Below the pieces are notes generated by a model that had not been told where the DNA came from, did no database searches, and saw only the letters and a list, made by a program, of their open reading frames with translations. A stretch of DNA of 64,000 nucleotides, from NCBI GenBank assembly GCA_014163555.1, contig JACJGO010000001.1, positions 186,001 through 250,000 on the forward strand. The letters are read 5' to 3'. Of the stretch, positions 1,938-61,826 are shown piece by piece. Position numbers and translations under genes: made by a program. Origin of the DNA: Flavisolibacter longurius. Its GTDB lineage: Bacteria; Bacteroidota; Bacteroidia; Chitinophagales; Chitinophagaceae. Within the stretch, counting starts at the first letter, position 1. Every line of letters starts with the position of its first letter.

Positions 1938-2348
1938 ATGAAAAAACTGTTCAGCACCAAAGTTTCGGAGAGTACATTAAGCGTGGCCCTGTTTCTCTTG
2001 CGGGTCGGCGCCGGTTCTTTAATGATGATCCAGCACGGACTGGGCAAACTGCAGAATTTTGGAGCCCGGGCCAATTCATTTTCCGATCCGTTTGGTATTG
2101 GATCAACCACTTCGCTCTCATTGGTCATCTTTGCTGAATTCTTTTGTGCCGCCTTTGTTATACTCGGTCTTTTCACCCGGCTTGCCGCTATTCCTATTGT
2201 AATTGCAATGGGCGTGGCACTCTTTGTTGCACACAATGGTAATTTTTTTGGCAAAGGTGAACTGCCCGGACTGTTCCTGATTTGCTTTCTCGTGATTCTT
2301 CTCACCGGTCCCGGACGCTTCAGCCTGGATCGATTGATAGGTAAGTAG
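1938..2348 (+). CDS. DoxX family membrane protein
   Basis: This 136-residue protein has about four hydrophobic segments and the pattern of the DoxX/TQO small-subunit family: LFLLRVGAGSLMMIQHGLGK near the N-terminus, FAEFFCAAFVILGLFTRLAA in the middle and a short basic tail. Family members are small inner-membrane proteins, sometimes linked to quinone or redox chemistry; the function of stand-alone copies is poorly defined. The gene is monocistronic, with a -7 box at 1911-1918, and converges on the carboxypeptidase gene. The family call is good; any substrate is unknown. Confidence 0.8.
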   Translation: MKKLFSTKVSESTLSVALFLLRVGAGSLMMIQHGLGKLQNFGARANSFSDPFGIGSTTSLSLVIFAEFFCAAFVILGLFTRLAAIPIVIAMGVALFVAHNGNFFGKGELPGLFLICFLVILLTGPGRFSLDRLIGK

Positions 2349-2425
2349 TTTCGTGTATGTAGTTTTTGGTTTGTAGTTGCCCGCCGGCTGATTACTACTT
2401 GCCACTGGCTATTCACTACTCGCTA
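2346..2425. repeat. Short-word array spanning the 3' ends of doxX and dacB
   Basis: The 74-bp convergent spacer consists of degenerate words. The dacB side reads TAGCGAGTAGTGAATAG on the minus strand, beginning with the dacB stop codon. The doxX side has TAGTTT..TAGTTTTTGGTTTGTAG, beginning with the doxX stop. The same GAGTAGTGA word recurs after the E2 gene at 7895-7910. Confidence 0.6.
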
Positions 2426-3829
2426 TTTAAGAACATCCAGCACTTTGTACATTTTCTGTACAATTGACGATGCCGAACCGGTGTAGTTATTGACGATGAA
2501 AGCAACGATGTACGGCTTGCCGTCTTTGCTGGTATGATACCCGCAAAAACCTTTGGCGCCACCGATGGTTCCGCTTTTTAATTTCATGCCATTGTACACC
2601 GGAAAGCCTTCATAAAATCCGCTGAACCAAGGCTGCTTTTTTGCATAGTGCAGAACCGCTGCCTGCGCATGGGTTGTCACCCGGTTTTGAGGCGAAAGAC
2701 CGGAACCATCCTGCATGTTCAGTTCGGAAGCATCAATGCCGATGCCTTTGCTTTTCCAGTAATCGCGAATTACATCGCCGCCAATTTCGGATGCTGCCGT
2801 TTTTCCTTTTTTCAGTGCCATGGACTTGGCCAACGCTTCGCCATAAAGGTTGATGCTTTTGCGCAAAAACCAGTACACAATGCTGTCCATCGAAGGAGAA
2901 ACTTCCGTGTGAAAATATTGAATGCCGGAAGGAAGAGAACTTGTCGATTGTTTATTGAACGGAATGGTTTTCCCTTGTCCTGAAACACCATTTTTTGCCA
3001 GCGTATCCTGCCATGTGGAAAGGAACTGGTTCAGCGCAGACGGCATGGCCCCTGAGATGGTAAAGTGGGATTCCTGCACCGGGATGGTACCACGAACCGT
3101 TGCTATATTTTGGCCAACCGGAAGATAGATATAACTGTTATCTCCGCTGCCTTTGGCAGCCGATGTTACTTTCGATTCAAACGAAACACCATAAAGCGCA
3201 GGCTTTGTACCCACAACTGTCACGGCATCGCCGATACTGGTACCGGATTTTAAAAAGAGGTCATATTGATTTTCCCGCCAATTCAGTGAAGCCGCACCTG
3301 CACCATAGTAGTTGCCGATATCATCCCAGATCCAGCCACCAGGAATGGCATTACTCTCCCATCCTCTTTCATCCACTATCGTTGTGGAAAACGACCGGAT
3401 GCCTTTTTGCCGAAAAGCCCGGAACAAGCGGTCTATCACAGCTTTTTCTGAAGTACCGTCCCAGCGCCAACTTCCCAATGTAGGATCGCCGGAAGGCTTG
3501 ATGTAAAGACCGCCATCAAGCACGCCGTTTTTCAGCGAACCATAATAACCAAAAGCGGTCTCGAAGCGAAAGTCCTTTCCCAAAATTTCGTAGGCTGTTG
3601 CTGCGGTAATAATCTTTTGCGTGGAGGCGGGTGCCACACCAATTTGTGCATTTTTTTCAAAGACAACATTCCCGGTCGTTGCATCAAGAACATAGATAGA
3701 AGAAAGCGCACTTTTTGTTTGCGGATCATTTTCGAAAGTTGCAAATGCACGGGCCAGTTTTGCCGTCACAGTTTGCGCATCTGCATGAAGAAGAAAAAAT
3801 AAAGACAGAAAAAGAAATGAATTACGCAT
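2423..3829 (-). CDS. dacB: D-alanyl-D-alanine carboxypeptidase/endopeptidase, PBP4 (S13) type
   Basis: The 468-residue product carries a signal peptide (MRNSFLFLSLFFLLHADAQ) and the three motifs of penicillin-binding enzymes: SxxK as S69-T-Q-K72 in APASTQKI, SxN as SIN in RKSINLYGEA, and KSG in MKLKSGTIGGAKG. The spacing, with a large insert between the first two motifs, fits class C PBP4/DacB. These enzymes act in the periplasm, trimming the terminal D-Ala or cutting cross-links in peptidoglycan. The gene starts 2 nt after the end of the frameshifted barrel gene, so the two are probably co-transcribed. Confidence 0.9.
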   Translation of the reverse strand: MRNSFLFLSLFFLLHADAQTVTAKLARAFATFENDPQTKSALSSIYVLDATTGNVVFEKNAQIGVAPASTQKIITAATAYEILGKDFRFETAFGYYGSLKNGVLDGGLYIKPSGDPTLGSWRWDGTSEKAVIDRLFRAFRQKGIRSFSTTIVDERGWESNAIPGGWIWDDIGNYYGAGAASLNWRENQYDLFLKSGTSIGDAVTVVGTKPALYGVSFESKVTSAAKGSGDNSYIYLPVGQNIATVRGTIPVQESHFTISGAMPSALNQFLSTWQDTLAKNGVSGQGKTIPFNKQSTSSLPSGIQYFHTEVSPSMDSIVYWFLRKSINLYGEALAKSMALKKGKTAASEIGGDVIRDYWKSKGIGIDASELNMQDGSGLSPQNRVTTHAQAAVLHYAKKQPWFSGFYEGFPVYNGMKLKSGTIGGAKGFCGYHTSKDGKPYIVAFIVNNYTGSASSIVQKMYKVLDVLK

Positions 3830-3831
3830 CT

Positions 3832-4568
3832 TTAAAAATTTAGGTAAACACCAACTCCACTACCCAATCCGGCACCGCCTCTAGCCACTCGTTGGTGAAA
3901 CGAATTCATTTGCAAAGTATACACCTGTATGCTGTATAAAATGCCAAGGTTTTTATAAATGCGGGCCGATAGATCGAGACGTGGTTGCAGGCCAACCACA
4001 ATGGTGGCAGCGCCGGCACGGTATGCACTTCGCACCTGCTCCTCTTCGGCCGGTGATAATCGTACAAATGCCGGGTCAACCTGAAGGATAATTTTTTCGC
4101 TTATGCGAAAACCCACATTTACCTGGATTCCCACTTGCGCCTGGAACCAGTTAAGGCTCTTCTTTGTCAGTCGCCAAAATAGCCCTGTTGGCAGGTTGAG
4201 GTAATCATACTGAAAACGAATCCTTAGTAAACGAAACGAATCGGCACTACGACCGGAGAGTGTCAAATAGAAAAAAGAACATCGCCCAAACTGTATTTAT
4301 TCAGTACCATTTCCTTCCGGCTGAATCCTAATCCTGTTCGCAGGACAATTCGTGGGTTTCGCAAAGGGAGGTCGACATAGGCATTGGCCATTACTTCTGT
4401 AATCGTCCCAATTTTACCGCGCCGTTTTGTCGGCACCAGAGAATCCTGTTGAAATGTAGTGAGGTATAAAAGTCCGCTGATGTCTGCTTTAAAAGAAGGC
4501 GAGGTATGCTGTGCCTGCAAAACCCCGGAGAACAGGACTAGGAACAAAAGCAGAAAAACCCATTGCAT
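3832..4568 (-). pseudogene. Outer-membrane beta-barrel protein gene split by a one-base frameshift
   Basis: Two overlapping frames together read as one protein of about 245 residues. The first (4263-4568) has a signal peptide ending LFSGVLQAQ and beta strands up to SLGDVLFSI, then stops. The second (3832-4266) has no ATG, only a TTG, and continues with FFYLTLSGRSADSFRLLRIR and further amphipathic strands to a terminal F (GVGVYLNF), as in outer-membrane barrels. The frames join at a run of six T (minus strand, about 4270-4275); seven T would restore one continuous frame. This could be a real disruption, phase variation at the homopolymer, or a sequencing error. It precedes dacB. Confidence 0.72.
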
Positions 4569-4585
4569 GCAGTCAACTCTTTTTT

Positions 4586-4593
4586 CAAATGTA
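4586..4593 (-). promoter_or_regulatory. -7 box for the barrel gene-dacB unit
   Basis: On the minus strand this reads TACATTTG (TAnnTTTG), 17 nt before the ATG at 4568. It sits back-to-back with the cinA box. Confidence 0.5.
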
Positions 4594-4596
4594 GGT

Positions 4597-4604
4597 TATG
4601 TTTG
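4597..4604 (+). promoter_or_regulatory. -7 box for cinA
   Basis: TATGTTTG fits TAnnTTTG and lies 15 nt before the ATG at 4620. It lies downstream of an alternative in-frame ATG at 4563, which supports the 4620 start. Confidence 0.5.
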
Positions 4605-4619
4605 TATCCAATTGTTTGT

Positions 4620-5879
4620 ATGATACAAGTAGAGGCTTCTATAATTACTATTGGTGATGAACTCCTGATTGGCCAAACCATCGATACCAACAGCGCTTTC
4701 ATTTCGCAGGAACTAAACAAAATGGGCATCTGGGTGCGACGACGTGTTGCCATTGCTGATGACGGCCAGGCCATCAAACAAACACTAGCCGAAGAAGCGG
4801 GACAAAGCCAGATTATTATCATTACCGGGGGACTTGGTCCTACGGCTGATGATATTACTAAGCCAACTCTCTGCGAATACTTTAATACAAACCTGGTAGT
4901 GAATGAAGGCGCCCTGAAAAATGTAACGGAGATCTTTCAAAAGCTTGGCCGGCCCATGATCGAACGAAACGCCAAACAGGCCGAAGTGCCGGAAAGTTGC
5001 GTGGTACTACCCAACCTGCGGGGCACAGCACCAGGCATGTGGTTTGAAAAAGATGGGGTGGTGTACATTTCACTTCCCGGCGTACCGCATGAAATGAAAG
5101 GGCTGATGGCACACAGTGTGCTGCCGAAATTAAAGGAACAATTTACCTTGCCGGCCCTGCTGCACCGCACCTTGCTTACGGCCGGCCAGGGCGAATCCTT
5201 TATTGCCGAACGTCTGGTGGCATTTGAAGAAAACCTTCCTTCCCATATCAAGCTGGCCTATCTGCCAACGTACGGCATGGTGCGGTTGCGCCTTACCGGT
5301 AGAGCTGAAAATATGGCTGTGCTGACGGAGGAAATAGACAGCGCCTTTGCCAACCTGCAAGTACTGGTGAAAGAATGGCTGATTGCCGTTGAAGACGTAT
5401 CGGTTCCTGTCATTATCAGCTGGCTGCTGAAAGAAAAAGGGGCCACGCTTTCTACGGCCGAGAGCTGCACAGGTGGTTATATTGCCCACCTGTTGACATC
5501 ATTGCCGGGATCTTCGGCGATTTTTCTGGGCACTGTGGTAGCTTATGACAATTCGGTGAAAGAAAATGTTTTGGGTGTTGATAACAGAACATTACAGGAA
5601 CACGGTGCGGTGAGTGAACAAACGGTTCTGCAAATGGCGGCCGGTGCTTGCAAGCAGCTTCAAACCGATTACGCCATTGCCACATCGGGAATTATGGGTC
5701 CGGATGGAGGAAGTGGTGAAAAACCGGTAGGTACGGTTTGGATCGGGGTTGCCAATAAAGACGGCAGAGCGAAGGCGCAGAAATTTCATTTTCGGTTTGA
5801 CCGCATGCGAAATATTGAACTGGCAGCGAACAATGCGCTGTTGCTTTTGCGTAAGTTTTTACTGGAAAAAGAGGTGTGA
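4620..5879 (+). CDS. cinA: CinA-like protein, nicotinamide-nucleotide amidohydrolase
   Basis: This 419-residue protein has the two-domain CinA layout. The N-terminal MoCF/COG1058 domain shows ASIITIGDELLIGQTIDTNS and GGLGPTADDITKPTLCEYF. The C-terminal amidohydrolase domain shows STAESCTGGYIAHLLTSLPG and SGIMGPDGGSGEKPVGTVW. The family deamidates nicotinamide mononucleotide in pyridine-nucleotide recycling, and the N-terminal domain has been linked to ADP-ribose pyrophosphatase activity. The start at 4620 (MIQVEAS) is chosen because an upstream ATG at 4563 lies before the promoter box and adds an unconserved Cys-rich stretch. Transcription diverges from the barrel gene. Confidence 0.93.
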   Translation: MIQVEASIITIGDELLIGQTIDTNSAFISQELNKMGIWVRRRVAIADDGQAIKQTLAEEAGQSQIIIITGGLGPTADDITKPTLCEYFNTNLVVNEGALKNVTEIFQKLGRPMIERNAKQAEVPESCVVLPNLRGTAPGMWFEKDGVVYISLPGVPHEMKGLMAHSVLPKLKEQFTLPALLHRTLLTAGQGESFIAERLVAFEENLPSHIKLAYLPTYGMVRLRLTGRAENMAVLTEEIDSAFANLQVLVKEWLIAVEDVSVPVIISWLLKEKGATLSTAESCTGGYIAHLLTSLPGSSAIFLGTVVAYDNSVKENVLGVDNRTLQEHGAVSEQTVLQMAAGACKQLQTDYAIATSGIMGPDGGSGEKPVGTVWIGVANKDGRAKAQKFHFRFDRMRNIELAANNALLLLRKFLLEKEV

Positions 5880-5930
5880 AGGAATTGATTATTCATTATT
5901 CAATACTCATTATTAACAACTGAAGAACTC
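5877..5930 (+). repeat. Short-word array after cinA
   Basis: Directly after the TGA stop come AT-rich repeats of ATTCATTATTCAATACTCATT type. Confidence 0.45.
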
Positions 5931-5936
5931 ACTGAG

Positions 5937-6085
5937 AATTGCCCCGGCATTTATGCCGGGGTGGAATCACAAGACTTTATTTTTTGTATCGGCTGTAGCC
6001 GAACCGGGACTAGCTTCGGCTACAGCCGATATAAGTATCGTTTTTATTTGCTTTTCATCCCCGTGCTGAAGCCCGTGGCAATGAC
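5937..6085. repeat. REP-like inverted doublet (BIME/REPIN-like)
   Basis: The left unit carries a hairpin CCCCGGCAT-tt-ATGCCGGGG (5942-5961). The right unit, in the opposite orientation, reads ATTGCCACGGGCTTCAGCAC followed by GGGG on the minus strand. It resembles the left unit (ATTGCCCCGGCATTTATGCC then GGGG) and shares the flanking bases. The two flank a perfect 17-bp inverted repeat at 5987-6003/6015-6031. The head-to-head arrangement resembles REP doublets mobilised by RAYT transposases in other bacteria; no RAYT gene is in this window. Confidence 0.6.
5987..6031. repeat. Perfect 17-bp inverted repeat with 11-nt loop
   Basis: TATCGGCTGTAGCCGAA at 5987-6003 pairs fully with TTCGGCTACAGCCGATA at 6015-6031. 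There is no T-run afterwards, so it is not a typical terminator. Confidence 0.8.
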
Positions 6086-6502
6086 TGGATGAGCATTGGT
6101 TCTCAAAATCTCCTTGGGAAACAGATAGCTCTTGAAAAACCAAGAGATTATTCATGCTAAGAGCGTCGATTTAAATGAAGCCGATTCGGTAAACAAAAAA
6201 ACGGATAGATTTTCTACTATTGCTCATTTTGGAAGCGACTTCGCAAAAACTTAAAAACACCGTTAAAAACCATATAACCACCTTTGCTTATTTTTGGCGC
6301 TGATTGGAAAACGATTGCCTGCTACTGTAATGAATGGAGCGGAATGTTCAGCAGCGATAAAAGCGCTGAAGGGTGCGACGCAACAGGAGTTCAATAGTAG
6401 TAATGCCGCCGGGTACAAAAACCGGTGGCTGTAAACAACAAACGTCACCTGTAGAAAAACGGGTGCCGGCTTTGAACCTTTTAAAACTTTGAACTGATTT
6501 TT

Positions 6503-7882
6503 ATGCCTACTGTTGATTTGGTTATGCCTAAGATGGGCGAGAGTATCATGGAAGCCACGATTTTAAAATGGCACAAGGGTATTGGTGATACGGTTAAAAT
6601 GGATGAAACCTTATTGGAGATCGCCACCGATAAAGTGGATAGCGAAGTGCCTTCTACAGCCGAAGGGGTGATTGAAGAACTGCTGTTTAACGTGAACGAT
6701 GTGGTGCCCATCGGCACCGTTATTGCCCGCATCAATACCGGCGGACAGGGAAGCCAACCGGCAAGTGGAAATGGACAACAGGCAACGGCCCAGGCTACGC
6801 AGTCGGCGCCAGCAACAAATACACAAGCCGAATCCGCCGCACAGCCAACAGCCCAACAAACACCCAACACCCAACCCCAAACTCCAAACCCCAACCGTTT
6901 TTATTCGCCCCTGGTACTGAACATTGCTGCACAGGAAGGTGTCAGCATGAGTGAACTGGAAAGCATTCCGGGTACAGGTGCCGAGGGAAGGGTATCGAAA
7001 AAAGATATTCTGCAATACATCAGCGATAAAAAAGCAGGCAAAACATCCGGAGCCTCACAAGCAGCTTCTGCCCCGCAACAACCGCAAGCAGCCCGCCAGG
7101 AAATGGTAATTCCAATGGCCAAAGTGGAAGCAAGGGAAGAGCCGCAGTCGAACCAACTGACAAACTACAGCGGCAATGTAGAGATCATTGAAATGGACCG
7201 TATGCGCAAGCTGATTGCCGATCATATGGTGCGCAGCAAACACACCTCGCCGCATGTAACCTCCTTTACAGAAGCCGATGTTACCAACCTGGTGATGTGG
7301 CGTGACAAAGTGAAAAAGGAATTTGAAAAACGCGAAAGCACCAAGATCACGTTTACGCCCCTGTTCATTGAAGCCATTGTACGCTGTATCAAACGCTTCC
7401 CGCTGATCAACAGTTCTGTAGATGGGAACCGCATCATTGTAAAAAAAGACATCAACATCGGCATGGCCGCGGCCTTGCCCAGTGGCAACCTGATTGTTCC
7501 CGTTATTCGCAATGCAGATGGATTTAATCTGGTAGGCCTTGCCAAACAGGTAAACAGCCTGGCTGAAAATGCCCGCAACAATAAATTAAAACCGGAAGAC
7601 ATTGCCGATGGCACGTTTACCCTAACCAATGTGGGAACCTTTGGCAGCCTGATGGGAACCCCTATCATCAACCAGCCGCAGGTAGCTATATTGGCCGTAG
7701 GCGCCATTAAAAAACGCCCGGTCGTGATTGAAACACCGCATGGCGACAGCATTGCCATTCGCCATATGATGTACCTGTCCATGAGTTATGATCACCGTAT
7801 TGTTGACGGCAGCCTGGGTGCGACTTTCCTGACCGCCGTAGCCAATGAGCTGGAGAATTTTGACAGCAACCGGCAATATTAA
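6503..7882 (+). CDS. 2-oxoacid dehydrogenase complex dihydrolipoamide acyltransferase (E2)
   Basis: The 459-residue protein shows the E2 domain order. An N-terminal lipoyl domain carries the lipoylated Lys44 in EIATDKVDSEVPS. A low-complexity Gln/Pro/Thr/Asn linker (about 78-130) follows, then a peripheral subunit-binding domain (RFYSPLVLNIAAQEGVSMSE .. GAEGRVSKKDIL), a second linker and a catalytic acyltransferase core ending with H431-R-I-V-D435-G. E2 transfers the acyl group from E1 to CoA in the cytoplasm. Sequence alone does not separate 2-oxoglutarate from branched-chain or pyruvate forms here. E1 and E3 genes are not adjacent. The DNA of the first linker resembles an intergenic repeat (6856-6897). 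Confidence 0.9.
   Translation: MPTVDLVMPKMGESIMEATILKWHKGIGDTVKMDETLLEIATDKVDSEVPSTAEGVIEELLFNVNDVVPIGTVIARINTGGQGSQPASGNGQQATAQATQSAPATNTQAESAAQPTAQQTPNTQPQTPNPNRFYSPLVLNIAAQEGVSMSELESIPGTGAEGRVSKKDILQYISDKKAGKTSGASQAASAPQQPQAARQEMVIPMAKVEAREEPQSNQLTNYSGNVEIIEMDRMRKLIADHMVRSKHTSPHVTSFTEADVTNLVMWRDKVKKEFEKRESTKITFTPLFIEAIVRCIKRFPLINSSVDGNRIIVKKDINIGMAAALPSGNLIVPVIRNADGFNLVGLAKQVNSLAENARNNKLKPEDIADGTFTLTNVGTFGSLMGTPIINQPQVAILAVGAIKKRPVVIETPHGDSIAIRHMMYLSMSYDHRIVDGSLGATFLTAVANELENFDSNRQY
6856..6897 (+). repeat. Intergenic-type word array inside the E2 coding linker
   Basis: ACACCCAACACCCAACCCC and ACTCCAAACCCCAACC lie in frame and encode a TPN/QP-rich linker. The 14-mer ACTCCAAACCCCAA (6881-6894) recurs exactly, on the opposite strand, in the gltA-sucD spacer at 23862-23875. 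Confidence 0.65.
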
Positions 7883-7925
7883 GTAGATAGCAAGTAATGA
7901 GTAGTGAGTAGCCTTTACTACAACT
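7880..7925 (+). repeat. Short-word array after the E2 gene
   Basis: It starts with the stop codon and runs TAAGTAGATAGCAAGTAATG then AGTAGTGAGTAG, the same vocabulary as downstream of dacB. Confidence 0.6.
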
Positions 7926-7938
7926 CTCCTTTCATAAG

Positions 7939-7970
7939 AAAAGACCTCCTGAATGATCAGGAGGTCTTTT
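7939..7970. terminator. Bidirectional intrinsic terminator between convergent genes
   Basis: The 14-bp arms AAAAGACCTCCTGA/TCAGGAGGTCTTTT are perfect with a 4-nt loop. A-run and T-run on either side serve both the E2 gene and the phosphatase gene. Confidence 0.85.
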
Positions 7971-7978
7971 TATTTTAA

Positions 7979-8006
7979 TACGATACTACAAACTACTAAC
8001 CACTTA
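7979..8006 (-). repeat. Short-word array after the histidine-phosphatase gene
   Basis: On the minus strand, from the stop codon: TAAGTGGTTAGTAGTTTGTA. It uses GTAGT/GTTAGTAG words related to those at 2346-2425. Confidence 0.5.
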
Positions 8007-8598: not shown

Positions 8599-9309
8599 AT
8601 GAAAAAATTATCCGAGACCTGGTTTGCCGAAGGGTATATTGATTTCGAGTTAAAGAAATACACATTGCTGGCTTACCTGCAGGCCATTAACCAGTATTTT
8701 GATGAGAACAAACTGTACCCGCAACTGGCCGATCTGATTTTTCATTACAACAACATCATTGCTTTCCGGGAGAACAAACGTTACCTGCAGGAGCAGTTTC
8801 CCAAAAAGCTCACCGGTGTCCAGATCGAACAACTGCAGGTGCTGTATGAACAAATGATCGAGGATAATGAACTGATGCAGGAACTGGAAGACATCATCAA
8901 CTTTGCTGCCGGCCGCATGAAAACAACCATCAGCAGCGGCACTGAGATCTATGAATTTGTGGAAGAAAATCTTTCCATCTCTCCTATCGGTATTCTGCCG
9001 CTGGATGTGCAGGAAGGCTATTTCTTTTTAAGCACAGGAAAAACAAAATCAACCCGTGTTTACCAGTACCGTCTTTCTATTTTCGACAAACACGATGAGC
9101 GGTACCGCAGCATGAAAACCGCCTTTATTGATACGCTCCAGCGCAGCATGGTATATACTTATGAGAATATGAAATCCGAGTTGATCAAATCCCGGCAGGA
9201 TATCCCCAACCCGGCTGTGTATTGCATTGAAACGGAATTAAGTTTTCCCGTGGAGGAAACACTGCTTCCCATAGCCAAGCGTTCCCTGGTGAAGTATATT
9301 TCGGTTTGA
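8599..9309 (+). CDS. Conserved hypothetical protein, 236 aa
   Basis: I do not recognise a family. The protein is soluble, with no signal peptide or membrane segment. The first 115 residues are mostly helical and charged (AGRMKTTISSGTEIYEFVEE at the end of that part); the C-terminal half looks alpha/beta (QEGYFFLSTGKTKSTRVYQY, ELSFPVEETLLPIAKRSLVK). The coding sequence is intact, codon usage matches its neighbours, and a strong terminator follows. It is probably a Bacteroidota-specific cytoplasmic protein. It stands alone between the divergent phosphatase gene and the convergent S9 peptidase gene, so context gives no functional hint. Confidence 0.75.
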   Translation: MKKLSETWFAEGYIDFELKKYTLLAYLQAINQYFDENKLYPQLADLIFHYNNIIAFRENKRYLQEQFPKKLTGVQIEQLQVLYEQMIEDNELMQELEDIINFAAGRMKTTISSGTEIYEFVEENLSISPIGILPLDVQEGYFFLSTGKTKSTRVYQYRLSIFDKHDERYRSMKTAFIDTLQRSMVYTYENMKSELIKSRQDIPNPAVYCIETELSFPVEETLLPIAKRSLVKYISV

Positions 9310-9399
9310 TGTTACTCTATATTCGATATTGGATATTATTAAATACGGCCAGCTTTTATTTTAAGAATGCACTTGTATAGAGACCATTTCATTTTCTGT

Positions 9400-9440: not shown

Positions 9441-9453
9441 ACATGGAGAGATT

Positions 9454-18686: not shown

Positions 18687-18722
18687 CATTTGCCAATTGC
18701 TTATTGCCTTTTGCCAATTGAA
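18687..18722 (-). repeat. Short-word array overlapping the 3' end of the FAD protein gene
   Basis: CAATTGCTTATTGC (18694-18707) occurs again exactly at 28677-28690 after rpoC; CCAATTG repeats at both ends. The stop codon of the FAD gene lies inside the array. Confidence 0.6.
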
Positions 18723-23790: not shown

Positions 23791-23849
23791 TACATTGAAA
23801 ATTTTATATTGAGACGTGTTTATTTGAGCGTGGTAAAGTTAAGGAAAGA

Positions 23850-23997
23850 ACAGTTTTGGGTTTGGGGTTTGGAGTCTTGCGTTTAGAGTTGGGGTGATGA
23901 TGCTATTTTCTTCTACTGCTCTAACAGCCAAATTGCAGGAAAGTTTGGTTGGATGAAAGAATAACCCGAAACTCCAAACGCCAAACTCCAAACTTCT
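23850..23997. repeat. Inverted short-word arrays in the gltA-sucD spacer
   Basis: The left side has GGGTTTGGGGTTTGGAGT; the right side has AAACTCCAAACGCCAAACTC then CAAAC. The two sides are complementary vocabularies about 100 bp apart. Confidence 0.65.
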
Positions 23998-23998
23998 T

Positions 23999-24006
23999 TA
24001 CTTTTG
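23999..24006 (+). promoter_or_regulatory. -7 box of sucD
   Basis: TACTTTTG fits TAnnTTTG. A possible TTG start at 24004 overlaps this box, so translation must start downstream, at 24025. Confidence 0.6.
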
Positions 24007-24897: not shown

Positions 24898-24980
24898 CGG
24901 CAAACGTGAAAAGTGAAACCAAGTGAGGTTTATTCTATCGTGTATTCCGGTTTCACATCTTCTGTTTGACGTTTCACCTA
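24895..24980 (+). repeat. Inverted short-word array after sucD
   Basis: Just after the stop, AAACGTGAAAAGTGAAACC is followed about 30 nt later by GGTTTCACATC..TTTGACGTTTCACC, the complementary words. Related CGTTTGACGTC words occur after the ompH-like gene. Confidence 0.55.
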
Positions 24981-25235
24981 CAAAATAGTGAGGCCCTTCT
25001 AAAGCGAAGGGCCTCGTCGTATTCAATACGTACGAATTTAAACTGGCGAATACGGATTTTAATTACAGTCCAGGTTACGTTTTCAGGGCTAGATAATAGA
25101 AGGTTTGAAAGCAGTATCGTTTAGACCCTGATTGGTAAAGATTCGTTAAGCAAAAAGGCATTGGAATAGGTTTACACCTTTGTGTTGTGGCGAGAACGTT
25201 AAAGCTTTCGTAAGGTGAAAAGGTGTTTGAAAAAA
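24898..25235. other. 338-bp spacer between sucD and rfaE1
   Basis: It holds the word array and a GAGGCCCTTC/GAAGGGCCTC hairpin (24990-25015) that could terminate both convergent genes although its T-run is poor. From 25020 to 25235 I see no gene or clear element. Confidence 0.55.
24990..25015. terminator. Probable terminator hairpin between sucD and rfaE1
   Basis: Perfect 10-bp arms GAGGCCCTTC/GAAGGGCCTC, 6-nt loop, but no run of T afterwards. Confidence 0.5.
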
Positions 25236-27715: not shown

Positions 27716-27856
27716 GCAAAGAATTTTTTTGGAAGATAGGTATTCGATCGTGAAACGGGAAACGTCAGTTTAGAAAAGAAAAACAACGACTTCTGTTCGA
27801 TGAATTGCAGCTATACTGTCGCATGGCTTTTATGACAGCCAGGTATCCAGAATAAA

Positions 27857-27886
27857 ACTGGAGAAACCATTTACGGTTTCTCCAGT
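27857..27886. terminator. Terminator-like hairpin between ompH-like gene and permease
   Basis: ACTGGAGAAACC/GGTTTCTCCAGT, perfect 12-bp arms, 6-nt loop. On the minus strand it lies about 30 nt downstream of the ompH-like stop. Confidence 0.65.
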
Positions 27887-27919
27887 CTCACATCTCGCCA
27901 TTGACGTTTGACGTCTTTA
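27885..27919 (-). repeat. Short-word array after the ompH-like gene
   Basis: From the stop codon on the minus strand: TAAAGACGTCAAACGTCAAT, with ACGTCAA repeated, then ggcgagatgtgag. Confidence 0.5.
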
Positions 27920-28525: not shown

Positions 28526-28648
28526 GAAAGGGATACTTTATCAGACGAAAATAGGGTTAACAGCGCATTTTGAAGTGTTAAAACGTCAGATGTAGAGCGT
28601 GTTCCATCAAACATTTTGACACCATTTACGAAAGCAATGTAAAGAAAA

Positions 28649-28673
28649 AAGGAGCAAGAAAATCTTGCTCCTT
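28649..28673 (-). terminator. Intrinsic terminator of the rpoBC unit
   Basis: AAGGAGCAAGA/TCTTGCTCCTT arms with a 3-nt loop. On the minus strand the hairpin is followed by TTTTTTCTTT. It lies 33 nt after the rpoC stop. Confidence 0.85.
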
Positions 28674-28675
28674 CG

Positions 28676-28708
28676 TCAATTGCTTATTGCGAATTGTTTA
28701 TTGCATTA
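28676..28708 (-). repeat. Short-word array after rpoC
   Basis: From the rpoC stop on the minus strand: TAATGCAATAAACAATTCGC then AATAAGCAATTG. It shares an exact 14-mer (28677-28690) with 18694-18707. Confidence 0.6.
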
Positions 28709-33001: not shown

Positions 33002-33027
33002 TTTTACTTATTTCTGATTTGAAGATT

Positions 33028-33111
33028 TGTAATATGTGAGTGGTGAGTTGTCAGTGGTGAGTAAGTGAGTGTTAACACTCACTTACTCACCACTGACCAT
33101 TCACAACCTTA
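33028..33111 (-). repeat. Short-word array between rpoB and rpoC
   Basis: From the rpoB stop on the minus strand the words GGTTGTGAATGGTCAGTGG and GTGAGTAAGTGAG run into their own reverse complements. The middle is the palindrome at 33050-33097. Confidence 0.7.
33050..33097. repeat. Perfect 48-bp palindrome between rpoB and rpoC
   Basis: Arms of 24 bp (33050-33073 and 33074-33097) are exact reverse complements with no loop; the centre is GTGTTAACAC. Flanking words extend the symmetry imperfectly. There is no T-run, so a normal intrinsic terminator is unlikely. Confidence 0.9.
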
Positions 33112-40763: not shown

Positions 40764-40857
40764 TGTTTTACATTTTAAATAACCGCCTTCACAGCTTACG
40801 GCTCCGGCGGAAGGTTTATAAAAGTGTCTTCACTTGTACCCGAAGACTTGGGATTTA

Positions 40858-40933
40858 ATGTGATAATGTGACAATTTGAAAACGAAAAGCAAATTCAATT
40901 TTCAAATTTGCACATTTGCTAATTTTCGAATTA
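40858..40933 (-). repeat. Short-word array between rplJ and rplL
   Basis: From the rplJ stop on the minus strand come TAATTCGAAAATTAGC, then GCAAATTTGAAAATTG and AATTTGC. CAATTTGAAAA on the plus strand at about 40872 pairs with TTTTCAAATTTG. Confidence 0.6.
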
Positions 40934-46182: not shown

Positions 46183-46199
46183 AAAAATGGTTCGATGTT

Positions 46200-46262
46200 C
46201 AATGCTCAAGGTTCGGTGTCAGAAGGTTTTTTTACCCCGAACACCGAACCTTAAACAATTAA
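46200..46262 (-). repeat. Inverted short-word array between secE and tRNA-Trp
   Basis: AAGGTTCGGTGT (46208-46219) pairs with ACACCGAACCTT (46241-46252). Further GTTC words flank it, and a T7 run lies in the loop. Confidence 0.6.
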
Positions 46263-46272
46263 ACGTTGTTAG

Positions 46273-46343: not shown

Positions 46344-46349
46344 TTGAAA

Positions 46350-46380
46350 GCTAAGAGCTACCCGGCGGATAGCTCTTAGC
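46350..46380 (-). terminator. Hairpin between tuf and tRNA-Trp
   Basis: GCTAAGAGCT/AGCTCTTAGC, 10-bp arms, 11-nt loop, no clear T-run. It may be a processing or termination structure. Confidence 0.4.
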
Positions 46381-46424
46381 AATATTGCAGCAAATATAAG
46401 AGTATTTGCTCTGCCTTTCGGCCA

Positions 46425-46453
46425 ATAGCTAAAAGCTAAAGGCTAAAAGCTTA
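46425..46453 (-). repeat. Short-word array after tuf
   Basis: From the tuf stop codon on the minus strand: TAAGCTTTTAGCCTTTAGCT then TTTAGCTATTGG. CTTTTAGC repeats three times. Confidence 0.65.
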
Positions 46454-47638: not shown

Positions 47639-48000
47639 CTTATCGGTTTTTAGTTGTGGAGTTTTTGTTTTTGTTTTTCTCCCTCCGAACCAACTAAAAG
47701 CTCGAAGGAAAATTTTTGGGCTAAGTGTTCAAAGAAGAGAAAGTGTTAAAGGAAAATCTCTTTTGCTCCTTTCCTCTTTTCATCTCTTAGCTTAATCTTT
47801 TTTATGTTACCGGCAACCGAGGTTCTATTGAGCTTCTGTTGCAATCTATGGTTTGTTCGTTTTATTTCTTCCGGTGGAAGATATAAAACGAAACACACTT
47901 GTACATTTTGTTCGCTATGCAGCGAAGCCGTAAACCGAAAAATGCCAATCGCTTCCTGAGACGCCTCATTCACGATTGACTCTTTATCATTCACGTTTTG
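47639..48000 (-). other. 362-bp spacer between tRNA-Thr(GGT) and tuf
   Basis: No gene is convincing. Purine-rich words near 47720-47757 (AGAAGAGAAAGTG) face pyrimidine-rich words near 47763-47792 (CTCCTTTCCTCTTTTCATC), an inverted word pattern. The rest, up to 48000, shows no element I recognise and could be a 5' leader of tuf after tRNA processing. Confidence 0.5.
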
Positions 48001-48072: not shown

Positions 48073-48073
48073 A

Positions 48074-48157
48074 TTCTCAGTTGGTAGTTTCTAGTCGGTG
48101 GTTTGTTGTTGTAAAAAAGAACGACAAACTACAAACCTCAAACCACAAACGAGTTTG
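48074..48157 (-). repeat. Inverted short-word array between tRNA-Thr and tRNA-Gly
   Basis: GGTGGTTTGTTGTTG on one side faces ACAAACTACAAACCTCAAAC then CACAAAC on the other. Confidence 0.6.
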
Positions 48158-48231: not shown

Positions 48232-48239
48232 TTGAAGTT

Positions 48240-48330
48240 ATGTTCACAAGTTTACAAGTTCACTGGTTCACGAGTTGGAAAAACCAACTTGCGAACTTGT
48301 GAACGAGTGAACTCGTAAACTGTTCAAAGA
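48240..48330 (-). repeat. Inverted short-word array between tRNA-Gly and tRNA-Tyr
   Basis: GTTTACAAGTTCACTGGTTC and its neighbours are answered by GAACGAGTGAACTCGTAAAC. The two halves meet at GTTGGaaaaaCCAAC, giving a long imperfect hairpin of about 40 bp per arm. Confidence 0.7.
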
Positions 48331-48335
48331 ACCGG

Positions 48336-55248: not shown

Positions 55249-55266
55249 TAAAACGCCGAAATAAAA

Positions 55267-55293: not shown

Positions 55294-55308
55294 AATCTGA
55301 TTAATTCA

Positions 55309-58300: not shown

Positions 58301-60399
58301 GAGAGGTAGGTTCGTGAAACAAAACGACCCACATTGAAATCAAATGTATTTCCTGCATTACAACCAAGGGCAAAAAACATTGGGTATTTTCCAGCATTGT
58401 TATAATGAGCCGGATCATCAAGGTTGAATTCCAAGGTTGTTGCAGATGAGTGACCGTAATAAGTGATCAGGCTTACACCATTGTTGATTAATCGGGTTAA
58501 ATCCTCGTCGTTCAGTTGCTCCACAGAATTTGTACTTACTTTCCGGAAGGTTGTGACCTTAGCCCCCATCAGTGTATCCTGAATTTTGTTGCGATAATTC
58601 GACATGTACTGATTAAGAATGTCATCTAAGAAAACATCGCCGGCACCGATAATATGCGCAACCTGTTTCATCCAGTCCTTGTCTGCAATGTTGGGTGATG
58701 GTGTCCGCTGCGCCGTTTCGTAGTCTTTTACTTTTTTCAGGTAGGTTGCCACTTCCGCAGGGGTTATGGCTGTTAAGCGGCCCACAGGAACCAACGGACG
58801 GGAGGTGCTTAAGTCAGCACCCAGCAACATGTCTGACGCGGGATAACCGAAGGTGGGAACAAGGTTCAGCCTTTCCAAATCTGATTTTACAGAAGGATTG
58901 CTATTAGTTTCATATAGCTGCTGGTGCAAATAGTGAACGCCTCTACCAATTATGAACACATGCTTAGGCGCTACTGGATATCGGCTGCGGGCATACATAA
59001 TGAAGTTGCGGATACCGGCCGGATGTTTTTTAATCCCAAATGCAAACTGATCATTCAACTGGTCATCTAAGTAAATTTTGGCATTGTAATTACCACCATT
59101 GGCTGAGGCCCGATAGGACCTGTATTCATCCACAGGATTGGAACCATTGGCTCCATTAAACAGCAGTGAATTTGAGATGATTAGGTAGTCGCCTTGTGTG
59201 GCAGCCGTATTATAATTGATAAAGTTGCGCACCTGCATGGTTTGAATGCTGCCTAAATTGCTAGCTGCCTGACTTACCAGCACCAGGTTACGCGGTGAAG
59301 CAGAGGGCTGCAAAACCACCTGTACCAGCGAACCGGAAATTTGTGCTTCATACCGTTTCCCATTGGTCAGATCATATAGCACCGGCGCTACACTGCCATG
59401 ACTGAAACCTTCAATCTGCAGAAAGTTTCCCTGTGTGGAGGCAGCCAAGCTAAACTCAAAATTTGCAGCACCGCCAAAATTAAATTGGCGCGGGTACGTC
59501 AGCTCAATTTTGTGTACCACCATTCTATCCACAGGGCAAGTAGACGTACCACAGGCTTCTGTTATGTTTTTGACAACGATGGCTGCATTTCCGGAAGAAA
59601 TCCGGCTTGCGCCAAAACTCGCCTCCTTTACCGATTCCCGCATAAAAGGCACCTGGTCACCCAACAGCGAATCACCATTAAGCGTCACCAGGTATCGGCG
59701 GGAATTATATGCATTGCCGGTAACAGCTATTTTGAAGCTGGCATCCGGACCCGAGGCAGCCACAAATAAATTATTCAAATTGTCGGTGAGTGAGCCATCG
59801 CGGGGAATATCCGATGACGTCCATCCTTCGCCCCTGTCATAAGAAGACGAATACAGGTGATCGGAGCCGACAACATAATACAGGCCACGGTTGATCTGGC
59901 TGCGGTACCACTTGCCGGTTGTATACATAAAATAAGGTTCGGCAGGAAGCGTATTGCCACTGACATTATTGGCTGTTGGCTGCAGACGAAGATTGCCGCC
60001 TGCCGGGTTCACTGTAAGAAAATATGTTGCCGAATCGGTCAATAAACTCCATTTGTCGTTATATTGAAATGCGGGATCACGGTAAAGTTCGCGGTCAGGT
60101 TTGCCATCGTTCATTTGGCCCCAGAACTCAATGTAATCGGTACCGCTTAATTCACCGGTTTGTCGAGAGGTATATAGTGGCACCTGCACACCGTTGCGCC
60201 AGAGCTGGAATTGCTCTGCCGATGCACTACCCAAGCCCACAGCAGCAAGCGTGGTAGATGGAATGCGGAATACACCGTTGCTGCCTACTTTGAATTTATA
60301 ATAGGTTTTGGCATAGTCGATCCACTCGTTATTGAACCGCTGTTGGGCACCGGCTGTAATGGCCAGCAACACCAGTAAGCCAAAAAAGATTTTTCTCAT
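55309..60399 (-). CDS. porU2: PorU2-like C25 (gingipain-type) T9SS protein
   Basis: The 1696-residue protein has a signal peptide (MRKIFFGLLVLLAITAGAQ), N-terminal beta-rich domains, a C25 cysteine peptidase domain with His650 in LITYYGHSSATTLEFNLDDP and Cys680 in FFALGCNAGNTFDF, then CARDB-like Ig repeats (about 820-1550) and an FlgD-like C-terminal domain (WDGTDQYGQKLGNGVYLYR). PorU is the sortase of type IX secretion, removing the C-terminal signal and linking cargo to the surface with PorV. The extra Ig part and length separate this from ordinary PorU; the PorU2 name is from recalled family labels. It follows a porV-like gene by 27 bp. Confidence 0.82.
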   Translation of the reverse strand: MRKIFFGLLVLLAITAGAQQRFNNEWIDYAKTYYKFKVGSNGVFRIPSTTLAAVGLGSASAEQFQLWRNGVQVPLYTSRQTGELSGTDYIEFWGQMNDGKPDRELYRDPAFQYNDKWSLLTDSATYFLTVNPAGGNLRLQPTANNVSGNTLPAEPYFMYTTGKWYRSQINRGLYYVVGSDHLYSSSYDRGEGWTSSDIPRDGSLTDNLNNLFVAASGPDASFKIAVTGNAYNSRRYLVTLNGDSLLGDQVPFMRESVKEASFGASRISSGNAAIVVKNITEACGTSTCPVDRMVVHKIELTYPRQFNFGGAANFEFSLAASTQGNFLQIEGFSHGSVAPVLYDLTNGKRYEAQISGSLVQVVLQPSASPRNLVLVSQAASNLGSIQTMQVRNFINYNTAATQGDYLIISNSLLFNGANGSNPVDEYRSYRASANGGNYNAKIYLDDQLNDQFAFGIKKHPAGIRNFIMYARSRYPVAPKHVFIIGRGVHYLHQQLYETNSNPSVKSDLERLNLVPTFGYPASDMLLGADLSTSRPLVPVGRLTAITPAEVATYLKKVKDYETAQRTPSPNIADKDWMKQVAHIIGAGDVFLDDILNQYMSNYRNKIQDTLMGAKVTTFRKVSTNSVEQLNDEDLTRLINNGVSLITYYGHSSATTLEFNLDDPAHYNNAGKYPMFFALGCNAGNTFDFNVGRFVSRTYLSDKYVLEPERGSINFLASTHFGIVHYLDIFNTRSYTNMSSTLYGGTIGDILKRTTEDVYSYTTTEDFFARANAEETVLNGDPAIRLNQQAKPDYTITDDMIIMSPSFVSVADQSFQVKVSVKNLGKAINRQIVIETKRQFPDGVTEVIRRDTVNGTRYMDSLIFQVGIDPIRDKGNNKIFVTVDADNIVEEVFETNNAASREFLIFEDEARPVYPINMGIITQPSVTLKVSTANPFATARTYRVEIDTTELFNSPAKVVVYKTAPGGLIEFEPGLTFKDSLVYYWRVAPESTNSNYSWNTSSFIYLSNHSVGFNQSHFYQHQKTNTNHLILENGSTWRFPFTKNNLLIRSGVFVTAVTQAAEFAVAINGYNGLIRSICEWPSLVINVFDPVTFKPWFNAPSGQPGQYGSDNICGTDRVYNFQYVLNNADKRKKLVEFLELIPAGHIVTVRNFGTSEPNNNVFVDVWKNDTVSLGRNRSIYHHLQGQGFSDIDSFYRPRAFIFTYKKDAKAEVEPKSIFSEGIYDKIALSADYFTPDTIGYATSPAFGPAKNWKEFKWGGKTIDQGGGDDILFSLIGIKENGNVDTVMNGIKMNQPVVDLSVIDAKQFPYLKIHMRNVDSIYHTPFQLGYWRLTYDPLPEGLMAPNLYFQMKDTFDVGEPVDFRIAFKNVSASNFSDSIEVKVQVTDRHGVQKLIAVQPLKPLNANDTVLVHFNIDTKQLVGSNSLFVDVNPGNKPLEQYRFNNFAFRHFFVRGDTLNPMMDVTFDNVHILNRDIVSAKPDILIKLKDEAKWMLLNDTSVLSVQVRFPSGVLKTYRYNSDTLTFTPATGAPNVSNNATVRLRPFFTEDGDYELIVTGKDMSNNAAGTVSYRVGFQVVNKPMISNMLNYPNPFTTSTSFVFTLTGSEVPQNIRIQILTVTGKIVREITKDELGPLRIGRNITDFKWDGTDQYGQKLGNGVYLYRVITNQNGKSLDKYTASDDPTDKYFNKGYGKMYLMR

Positions 60400-60426
60400 T
60401 GCAATGTTATTTTAGTACGGATGGGG

Positions 60427-61539
60427 TTAGTTTCTTCTTTTATTCTTGTTGTTTACAAGGTCAAGCTGTAAAGAAAATACATGAGTATAAAGCGGATTGG
60501 ACTGATTGGCCAGGTTGGTAAAAGCATAATCGATCCGCACATTCTGCAGCCTAAAGCCGGCACCGGCGCTTGGCTGGTAGATCCAAACCTTTTTCTGGTT
60601 GAGGGTATCGCCATCAGCCAGGGCACGCTGGAAATTATTAATGCCGCCCCGCAGGTACAGCACATCGTTGATATTGAGTTCGGCTCCCAGTTTCGGATCA
60701 ATGCTGATCGGGTCTCCGCTTACCAAGGTATTGCGCTTTCCATCGAATGTAAGATCCAAGTTGGCTTCGGCCAGGAGGCTTAGCTTTTTTGAAAACTCAA
60801 AGTTGCGGCCAGCGCCAAGAATCAGGCGGGGCGCTGTCATTTCGGTTGATTTAACCGGAATATCATTATTGGTCAGGTAAAGCGCCTCTTTTTCCCGCTC
60901 GGTAAATGAAAACGACCAGGCATTGAACGTAGTGGTAATGTCACGAGCCGCAACGCCAAGGCGCCAGGCCCCGGTGCGGATTTGCAGGCCAGCATCCAGG
61001 CCAAAGCCCCAGGCTTTTGCAAAGCTGCCCACGCTGCGGTGAATCACTTTTGCATTGATACCAAAATTGATGCTTTTGTCTTCGGTTTCTTTGATGTTTT
61101 GTGCCAGGGAAAGCAAAAACGCATAATCTGCCGAAGAGAAAGACTGAATGTTGTTGTAATTCACCGAACCATCCGGCTCCACCAGGAACAGGGTGTTCAT
61201 GATATCGTCCACGGCAAAACGCAGGGCCGAAATGCCGATCGTACGCTTGTTGTTCGAAACTGGCAGCGCAAGGCTGGCATAATCGTATTTGCCAATGCCG
61301 GCAAAATACTCGGCATGCATCACGTTAACGTTGCCATAGTCTTTCACCTGCGCCAGACCGGCCGGATTCCAATAACCGGCCGTACCGTCTTTCACGGAGG
61401 CAATCTGCGCACTGCCCATGGCAAGTCCGCGGGCACCAGCACCGATATTTAAAAATTCATTGGAATACTTTCGGAATTGCGCTTGAGCAGAAAAACAAAA
61501 GAGCCCGAGCACAGCAAGGGCAGCAAGTTTGCGCTTCAT
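60427..61539 (-). CDS. porV2: PorV/PorQ family outer-membrane protein
   Basis: From the ATG at 61539 the protein has 370 residues: a signal peptide (KLAALAVLGLFCFSAQA), then the family start RKYSNEFLNIGAGARGLAMG and DGTAGYWNPAGLAQV, as in FadL-like PorV/PorQ barrels, and repeated beta strands to the basic tail NNKNKRRN. PorV shuttles T9SS cargo to the PorU attachment complex. The operon with the PorU2-like gene implies a dedicated attachment unit. The longer frame to 61626 is rejected because it lacks a proper signal start. Confidence 0.88.
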   Translation of the reverse strand: MKRKLAALAVLGLFCFSAQAQFRKYSNEFLNIGAGARGLAMGSAQIASVKDGTAGYWNPAGLAQVKDYGNVNVMHAEYFAGIGKYDYASLALPVSNNKRTIGISALRFAVDDIMNTLFLVEPDGSVNYNNIQSFSSADYAFLLSLAQNIKETEDKSINFGINAKVIHRSVGSFAKAWGFGLDAGLQIRTGAWRLGVAARDITTTFNAWSFSFTEREKEALYLTNNDIPVKSTEMTAPRLILGAGRNFEFSKKLSLLAEANLDLTFDGKRNTLVSGDPISIDPKLGAELNINDVLYLRGGINNFQRALADGDTLNQKKVWIYQPSAGAGFRLQNVRIDYAFTNLANQSNPLYTHVFSLQLDLVNNKNKRRN

Positions 61540-61623
61540 TACAGTGATTTTCGGATAAGCAATGGAAATTAAACGCTGTTTTCTCATGGATATTGGATAG
61601 GTAAACAGTTTTTGGCTGCAGAA

Positions 61624-61631
61624 CAAATATA
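61624..61631 (-). promoter_or_regulatory. -7 box of the porV2-porU2 operon
   Basis: TATATTTG on the minus strand, about 85 nt before the porV2 ATG at 61539. Confidence 0.55.
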
Positions 61632-61716
61632 CTCTCTCAAATTCAAATTCATAGAAGTGGCAAGGCTTTTCACGGCGGACTGGTGGAAAATCCCGGTCAA
61701 TTTGCCCCTTGCTGCC

Positions 61717-61724
61717 TACATTTG
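61717..61724 (+). promoter_or_regulatory. -7 box of tyrS
   Basis: TACATTTG fits TAnnTTTG. The leader downstream to the ATG at 61827 is about 95 nt and consists mostly of a word array. Confidence 0.55.
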
Positions 61725-61734
61725 CGGCCGAAAA

Positions 61735-61826
61735 GTTTACAGTTTACCGTTTGCTGTTTGCCGTTGAGAAACCTTTTCAACAAGAACTGTGAACAGTAAA
61801 AACTGTGAACGGCAAACCTTACAGAA
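61735..61826 (+). repeat. Inverted short-word array in the tyrS leader
   Basis: GTTTACAGTTTACCGTTTGC then TGTTTGCCGTTG is answered by ACTGTGAACAGTAAAAACTG then TGAACGGCAAACC. The arrays would form a long 5'-UTR hairpin just before the start codon. Confidence 0.65.

What the first reader, a model, noticed from the sequence alone, without database searches (positions are those of the whole stretch)
2346..61826. Stop-codon-anchored short-word arrays fill many intergenic spacers
At about thirteen gene 3' ends the DNA changes at the stop codon into a degenerate array of 5-10 nt words, each spacer with its own vocabulary. Examples: dacB TAGCGAGTAGTGAATAG; E2 TAAGTAGATAGCAAGTAATG; tuf TAAGCTTTTAGCCTTTAGCT; ompH-like TAAAGACGTCAAACGTCAAT; also doxX, cinA, histidine phosphatase, FAD protein, uup, sucD, rpoC, rpoB and rplJ. 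The spacers between tRNA genes and the gltA-sucD and tyrS leaders have the same build. Words mostly occur in both orientations, so spacers fold on themselves, and many supply stops in several frames. They do not match terminators, CRISPR or known mobile elements. I know no described family. They could be slippage-grown 3'UTR structures, products of a replication or repair process acting at transcript ends, or a regulatory RNA layer.
Basis: partly seen in the sequence, partly recalled or inferred. Interest (0 to 1): 0.78.

Follow-up and report, generated by a model that had tools for sequence, protein, structure and literature searches.

The report
Self-rewriting heptamer hairpins between genes
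The gaps between genes of this soil bacterium and its relatives often hold two facing arrays of imperfect 7- or 8-letter repeats; the shape can persist between species while the letters are replaced, most likely through DNA-copying slips and hairpin template switching, not through a known regulatory system.

Summary
In 400 kb of the window's genome (Flavisolibacter group, Chitinophagaceae) intergenic DNA is periodic at 7 nt (z 12.4, also 14 and 21) and weakly at 8; 28 and 10 of 249 spacers carry arrays, against 0.04 and 0.14 expected. Coding DNA nearly lacks them; 28 E. coli spacers have none. Thirteen of 33 window stretches tested reach p<=0.01. Array edges lie within 5 nt of a stop in 25% of cases, 5% expected; most form two inverted arms. 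Orthologous spacers can keep the form but change the words: the tRNA-Trp/secE spacer has two-arm arrays in six congeners with little between-species likeness in all 15 pairs. Arms change together: 67 double changes against 29 expected. Best explanation: a self-sustaining mutational process, unit slippage plus hairpin template switching, perhaps eased by missing SbcCD. No event was caught and no function tested; an RNA role is not excluded. Intergenic heptamer arrays are published for Xanthomonas/Nostoc and Beggiatoaceae, so this is a new variant: many vocabularies, octamers too, two-arm, stop-anchored, with genome dialects.

The parts
2346..2428 (.). doxX/dacB convergent spacer, period-7 words
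   Evidence: lag 7 p=0.003; inverted score not significant (p=0.86); DoxX and Peptidase_S13
5880..5915 (+). array after the cinA stop (ATTCATT-like heptamers)
   Evidence: p=0.003 (stretch 5877-5930), inverted p=0.25; TRF period 7
6841..6894 (+). heptamer array inside coding DNA, linker of the E2 subunit (reads AQPTAQQTPNTQPQTPNPN)
7883..8003 (.). E2/histidine phosphatase convergent spacer, words on both sides of an intrinsic terminator (by eye)
   Evidence: lag 7 p=0.003, inverted p=0.04
9310..9340 (+). array after the stop of 8599-9309 (ATATTCG/ATATTGG)
   Evidence: p=0.003; the significant inverted score there is a terminator
18690..18720 (-). period-7 run over the 3' end of the FAD protein gene
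   Evidence: TRF only; spacer test not significant
23841..24003 (.). gltA/sucD divergent spacer: left arm 23841-23883 (GTTTGGG), right arm 23963-24003 (AAACTCC)
   Evidence: p=0.003, inverted p=0.01; arms; Pfam
24898..25235 (+). 3' side of sucD (marginal)
   Evidence: p=0.05, inverted p=0.29
27716..27916 (-). after the OmpH-like gene: GTCAAAC/GTGAGAC words, a terminator, then inverse words (marginal here)
   Evidence: p=0.047, inverted p=0.11; G008 ortholog has arms around a terminator
28526..28705 (-). after rpoC: CAATAAG words then a terminator (marginal)
   Evidence: p=0.027, inverted p=0.26; G006 ortholog
33002..33108 (-). rpoB-rpoC spacer, two-arm GTGA-core heptamer hairpin
   Evidence: lag 7 p=0.003, inverted p=0.01; orthologs; Pfam
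40764..40930 (-). rplJ-rplL spacer, octamer array
   Evidence: lag 8 p=0.003, inverted p=0.03; Pfam
46183..46271 (-). tRNA-Trp/secE spacer, two-arm array (TTCGGTG)
   Evidence: lag 7 p=0.003, inverted p=0.01; six-species comparison; 70 spacers; SecE by Pfam
46344..46450 (-). tuf/tRNA-Trp spacer (AGCTTTT words, conserved in relatives)
   Evidence: lag 7 p=0.003, inverted p=0.02
47639..47999 (-). tRNA-Thr/tuf leader, octamer array
   Evidence: lag 8 p=0.007, inverted p=0.05
48073..48155 (-). tRNA-tRNA spacer, GTTTGNG heptamers and their inverse
   Evidence: p=0.003, inverted p=0.01
48232..48333 (-). tRNA-tRNA spacer, GTTCACNN octamers and their inverse
   Evidence: lag 8 p=0.003, inverted p=0.01
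61732..61820 (+). tyrS leader, GTTTACN words and their inverse
   Evidence: lag 7 p=0.003, inverted p=0.10; arm positions; Pfam

Best explanation
The arrays are self-sustaining mutational structures in DNA. (1) A spacer segment of 7 or 8 nt is duplicated or lost by slippage, giving imperfect tandem words. (2) The array folds back as a hairpin and the polymerase, stalled, copies one arm from the other (quasipalindrome template switching), so both arms share words and change together. (3) Repeated rounds sweep a new word variant through the array, so form and often position last longer than letters. (4) Coding DNA eliminates the events, so they accumulate between genes, often from the first bases after a stop. 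(5) Loss of the hairpin nuclease SbcCD in Chitinophagaceae may be permissive. Shown: periodicity, inverted arms, coupled change, turnover, place. Inferred: the copying mechanism, the order of events in step 3, elimination in step 4, the SbcCD role.
For: Only lags 7 and 8 (and 14, the double) stand out: 98 and 43 segments against 0-5 at lags 4-6 and 9-13 in the intergenic DNA of eight genomes; 63 and 42 against 0-3 at lags 5, 6, 9, 10 in 1190 spacers of 80 loci. Arms pair in register: identity 0.81 on the best diagonal, 0.57 one word off, 0.24 otherwise (74 arrays). Word-order shuffles: p<=0.05 in 26 of 68. Paired sites: 67 double changes against 29 expected; 38 of them complementary, where about 10 (a third of 29) or, granting the excess of double changes, 22 (a third of 67) would be expected (38 alignments). 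Arm-to-arm similarity within a species exceeds same-arm similarity between species in 45 of 56 comparisons at 18 spacers. Unit replacement: GGAGTCA x18 here, GGCGTTT x13 at the same spacer of G014. Polarity: 5' arm G>C in 59, C>G in 19, equal in 6 of 84 array hairpins (p=6e-6); 37, 39 and 16 of 92 others; G-C share 0.68 against 0.49; such a G-C asymmetry is what PMC8794818 derives from intrastrand template switching. An array also occurs in coding DNA at a linker. SbcD reaches the cut-off in 2 of 32 genomes, G024 and G037, both outside the family and array-poor.
Against: No single event was seen; no strain series was held. Indel lengths show only a slight excess at 7 and 14 in arrays. No loop inversion, a known by-product of switching between strands, was flagged in 17 comparisons, one of them just at the threshold. 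The T-A share is 0.50, above the 0.39 of other hairpins but not above half, so the predicted asymmetry is only half met. SbcD is not detected in array-poor Chitinophagaceae either (Puia has one weak hit, 41.6 bits), so its absence does not explain who has arrays, and the cut-off also misses 5 of the 13 control genomes with a hit. XseA absence is only suggestive (11 of 13 array-rich, 9 of 19 others; Fisher p=0.06, kinship ignored). A toy simulation gave both traits only when slippage and switching were both on, but then in just 2 of 60 runs, with rates of my choice. The best-diagonal, word-order and arm-to-arm tests favour the observed state because arms were picked as best alignments; the species pairs are not independent. 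Persistence at the tRNA-Trp/secE spacer could mean selection.
Confidence: 0.55

Rival explanations
1. Selected RNA hairpins: the transcribed two-arm arrays act in mRNA or tRNA-precursor processing, stability or attenuation; form is selected, letters are free.
For: Form kept with changed letters in the tRNA-Trp/secE spacer (24 of 70 distinct spacers have both a significant array and inverted arms); excess of complementary double changes; five of seven tRNA-adjacent window stretches are arrays.
Against: Selection for pairing gives no 7/8 periodicity; arrays occur between divergent genes (20 of 175), in two of four such own spacers ending beside a -7-like box and so probably upstream of that transcript (box consensus recalled); in three cases, by my reading of the 12 flagged among 90 two-arm arrays, array arms lie around a terminator; 44 of 70 spacers have no significant array there.
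Confidence: 0.2
2. Selected DNA structure: hairpin/cruciform arrays at gene borders absorb supercoils, insulate or organise the chromosome.
For: Found in all gene orientations; independent of terminators; stop anchoring.
Against: 745 of 901 spacers lack one; array and non-array spacers are about equally conserved in own/G014 pairs (0.72 against 0.74); related genera do without.
Confidence: 0.12
3. A mobile or copied repeat family (REP/MITE-like) that spreads from spacer to spacer.
For: Genome dialects in Terrimonas (40% of pairs alike) and G009 (26%), smaller excesses in G011, G012 and G014.
Against: In this genome pairs are hardly more alike than with other genomes (3.1% against 1.9%), in G003 and G008 not more; no fixed sequence or ends; RAYT-type transposases occur in 29 of 32 genomes whatever their arrays.
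Confidence: 0.1
4. Binding-site arrays for a protein that reads 7- or 8-nt repeats.
For: Strict unit length; shared word grammar above a column-permuted control (1.75% against 0.17%).
Against: Words differ between spacers and between species at the same place, which a single sequence reader would hardly tolerate (inference).
Confidence: 0.05

Closest known systems
GGGAATC / GGGGA(C/T)T heptamer arrays of Xanthomonas and Nostoc (PMC4692102; passages, Discussion)
   Same: [quoted passage not shown] it reports the idea that the unit reflects the DNA segment held by the polymerase active site.
   Different: One G-rich, G-quadruplex-forming unit type per genome; here many vocabularies, octamers too, mostly two-arm, whole-unit replacement; neither unit is a consensus word here.
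TAACTGA direct repeats of Beggiatoaceae, some cyanobacteria and Bacteroidetes (PMC4679880; abstract, Bacteroidetes section)
   Same: Intergenic heptamer arrays; in some Bacteroidetes with other heptamers beside them.
   Different: One exact word, in the main genome mostly just upstream of starts; related heptamers rarely or never as direct repeats.
Quasipalindrome template-switch mutation (E. coli PMC7202029, passages; yeast PMC8604942 and PMC3820800, abstracts; RNA stems PMC8794818, abstract, passages and Discussion)
   Same: Arm homogenisation, multi-site changes, predicted G-C pair asymmetry.
   Different: Described for separate sites; here it would act together with 7/8-nt slippage at about a sixth of spacers (156 of 901).
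Borg tandem repeats (PMC9879509, abstract)
   Same: Independently arising, fast-evolving repeats.
   Different: Direct repeats in archaeal extrachromosomal elements, also in genes.

Membership tests
Bacterial heptameric repeat arrays (Xanthomonas/Nostoc type) | 7-nt unit, intergenic | tested here: met
   octamers occur as well
Bacterial heptameric repeat arrays (Xanthomonas/Nostoc type) | one shared G-rich unit type per genome | tested here: not met
   62 distinct consensus units among 98 lag-7 segments of eight genomes, none of them GGGAATC, GGGGATT or GGGGACT; vocabulary test
TAACTGA repeats | word TAACTGA, upstream of start codons | tested here: not met
   0 of 98 lag-7 segments have it as consensus, any rotation or strand; no anchoring at starts
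Quasipalindrome template-switch hotspots | imperfect inverted repeat whose arms are made alike in multi-base steps | tested here: inconclusive
   coupled change met; no individual event observed, no loop inversion flagged
REP/RAYT elements | conserved palindrome in many copies tied to a RAYT | tested here: not met
   little shared sequence in this genome; RAYT presence does not follow arrays
Intrinsic terminators | GC stem followed by a T run | tested here: not met
   terminator-like sites equally frequent with and without arrays (23 of 120, 87 of 462)
Rfam RNA families | score over a family's gathering threshold | tested here: not met
   only five tRNAs in the window

The most novel reading that the evidence does not exclude
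A genetic element whose architecture, not its sequence, is inherited: a lineage-specific copying or repair activity keeps writing two facing 7/8-mer arrays into the same gene borders and can exchange a whole vocabulary within about 10% divergence, so each genome, and in this one nearly each spacer, speaks its own dialect.
Probability: 0.15. Interest if true: 0.88.

Novelty: new variant of a known kind. Interest (0 to 1): 0.62.

Why it matters
If right, natural genomes hold hundreds of records of slippage plus template switching, readable by comparison: a direct test bed for why bacterial repeats favour 7 nt, for how hairpins arise and stay paired without selection, and for what SbcCD-type nucleases prevent. 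It also warns that coupled changes in intergenic stems, usually taken as proof of functional RNA, can come from mutation alone. My extrapolation (38 array spacers in 400 kb) is some 500 arrays in this 5.66-Mb genome.

Tried and rejected
Tried without result: array edge beside a Bacteroidota-type -7 box (9 of 205 against 6.0 +/- 2.1 by random placement; box consensus recalled); loop inversion between arms (0 of 17 flagged, one at the threshold); unit-length indels (slight excess only); RAYT correlation (present in 29 of 32 genomes); SbcC_Walker_B (over cut-off in 18 of 32 genomes; in 16 of these the protein has 1133-1177 aa and SbcD is not over its cut-off, which from recall I take for MukB/JetC-like proteins, so this model does not tell SbcC). 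Left-arm G+T bias was weak (16 to 8 own, 28 to 17 genus); G against C was clear. Considered and rejected: assembly artefact (arrays also in the single-contig genome G003; the single-contig G015 is weak), CRISPR (no spacers, by inspection), Rfam family, guard of extra stop codons (many words, such as GTTTGGG, hold none).

Limits of the counts: genes were called by my own hexamer script, not curated; four of the nine 'coding' lag-7 segments begin at the called start and look like over-extended genes. Species pairs are not independent; one search set 114 gapped pairs aside. Array-rich and array-poor labels for searches come from 40-400 kb per genome for G handles and about 20 kb for L-derived ones. 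In one search the 80 loci were the best 80 of 577. In one search spacers over 300 nt were left out. In one search only the best segment of each array spacer was used. Eight of ten genus genomes sampled are array-rich; the other eight of the 18 in the genus were not sampled for this. Searches behind statements on print: in one open-licence library; the 2007 survey of bacterial simple repeats that PMC4692102 cites was not seen. PMC4060949 (passages) reports repeats of 4-11-nt units as normally or weakly over-represented across phyla.
Full report
What was checked. The window is G000:C58:186001-250000 of a 5.66-Mb genome. Its genus mate G008 has a contig of the same length, with nusG at the same place, as Flavisolibacter nicotianae NZ_RBCI01000003.1, so the window is from a Flavisolibacter-group member of the Chitinophagaceae (inference). 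I took 400 kb of its contig, called genes and tRNAs by script, and compared spacers with dinucleotide-preserving shuffles.

The arrays are real and their unit is 7 or 8. Self-match of intergenic DNA peaks at lag 7 (z 12.4), 14 (7.4), 21 (7.9), and less at 8 (4.9) and 16 (3.3); coding DNA is at background there. Lag 3 also stands out (8.6), perhaps unannotated coding. Twenty-eight of 249 spacers hold a lag-7 segment of score 12 or more (0.04 expected), ten a lag-8 one (0.14), at most one at each of lags 5, 6, 9, 10. Over eight genomes: 98 lag-7 and 43 lag-8 segments in about 97 kb of intergenic DNA, 9 and 0 in roughly nine times more coding DNA. Of those nine, four begin at a called start and look over-extended; the clearest in a gene lies in the linker of the E2 subunit at window 6841-6894 (my reading). 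In 50 kb of E. coli K-12, 28 spacers, none reaches score 11 at lags 5-10.

Anatomy. One quarter of 131 array edges facing a stop lie within 5 nt of it (5% expected); at starts there is no such excess. Array rates over nine genomes: 90 of 514 co-directional, 29 of 140 convergent, 20 of 175 divergent, 17 of 72 tRNA-adjacent spacers; none of 69 spacers under 50 nt. Most are two-arm: in the own genome 26 of 37, in seven congeners 50 of 71 beat all 20 shuffles for inverted match. Loops run from 0 to 150 nt (74 arrays). The 5' arm is G-richer (59 against 19, 6 equal; other hairpins 37 against 39, 16 equal). Terminator-like sites are as frequent with arrays (23 of 120) as without (87 of 462).

Distribution. 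Strong in 8 of 10 genus genomes sampled and in Terrimonas ferruginea (G020), weak in G005 and G015, absent or weak in G018, G019, G022 and five genomes of other families of the order, of which G024 and G030 have two arrays each. In 80 NusG-flanking loci of GTDB species, lag 7 and 8 counts are 63 and 42 of 1190 spacers (2.4 expected each), other lags 0-3; patchy by genus (4 of 18 spacers in Niastella caeni, 0 of 14 in N. vici).

Evolution. Between this genome and G014 (90-91% identical over rpoC and rpoB DNA) 97 orthologous spacers compare: 15 have arrays in both, 5 and 7 in one only; about 4.5 shared would be expected by chance (my arithmetic). Array spacers are about as similar (mean 0.72) as others (0.74), yet some changed wholesale: own GGAGTCA x18 against GGCGTTT x13; own octamers against heptamers in the tRNA spacer 48232-48333. 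In the tRNA-Trp/secE spacer six species carry unlike vocabularies; the same arm is scarcely alike between species (0.17-0.32) while arms match within (0.50-0.68) in all 15 pairs (arms were chosen for within-species match, which favours this contrast). By contrast the tuf/tRNA-Trp spacer keeps its AGCTTTT words in all six genomes shown (by eye). Among 70 distinct tRNA-Trp/secE spacers, 26 have a significant array and 24 of those also inverted arms; 44 have no significant array. Paired positions change together: 67 double changes against 29 expected, 38 complementary against about 10, or 22 if the excess of double changes is granted.

Vocabulary. In eight genomes' arrays, same-genome pairs are more alike than between-genome pairs (7.6% against 1.75% at 0.6): highest in Terrimonas (40%) and G009 (26%), raised in G011, G012 and G014, little in the own genome (3.1% against 1.9%), not in G003 and G008; permuting unit columns drops the rate to 0.17%, so a loose common grammar exists.

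Mechanism. Slippage explains the unit and tandem order; template switching explains inverted arms, coupled change and, in part, the G-C polarity (PMC8794818 expects G-C and U-A pairs to rise; here G-C 0.68, T-A 0.50, against 0.49 and 0.39 in other hairpins). PMC4692102 reports the idea that the heptamer preference reflects the DNA segment held by the polymerase active site. In yeast, quasipalindrome events were seen only under high transcription (PMC3820800, abstract). SbcD reached the cut-off in 2 of 32 genomes (G024, G037) with partial scores in G026 and G035, all outside the family, and a weaker one (41.6 bits) in Puia inside it; hence its loss may permit but cannot by itself decide. Exonuclease VII large subunit is not over cut-off in 11 of 13 array-rich and 9 of 19 other genomes (p=0.06, not corrected for kinship).

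What remains open. No event was caught in the act, function was not tested, and selection at single loci such as tRNA-Trp/secE cannot be excluded.

Noticed in passing
window 6364-6421; also 47639-47999 and spacers of relatives: A dispersed element of about 50-60 nt around GTGCGACGCAAC recurs: 11 matches in this genome, the window's own included, and similar stretches in the rpoB-rpoC spacers of L019 and L026 (by eye). No Rfam match in the window.
   Followed up: partly
L052 10381-10506 (strand -): Perfect heptamer array GGAGTCA x18; at the orthologous spacer G014 has GGCGTTT x13 (L282 11537-11627).
   Followed up: partly
window 6841-6894: Heptamer word array inside the E2 linker coding sequence, read in frame as a Q/P/T/N-rich peptide.
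   Followed up: no
L023, L025, L027 rpoB-rpoC spacers: Beside word arrays there are other repeat-like stretches (GGCTTCG...GTAGCGAAG type and GGCCCCC...GGGAACTTAGG type) shared with L019 and L026 in part (by eye).
   Followed up: no
genomes G005, G019, G022, G096-G108: Proteins of 1133-1177 aa with an SbcC-type Walker B although SbcD is not over its cut-off; not over cut-off in the nine other Flavisolibacter-group genomes searched.
   Followed up: no
intergenic DNA of C58:1-400000: Lag-3 self-match is also raised (z 8.6), perhaps missed small genes or gene remnants.
   Followed up: no
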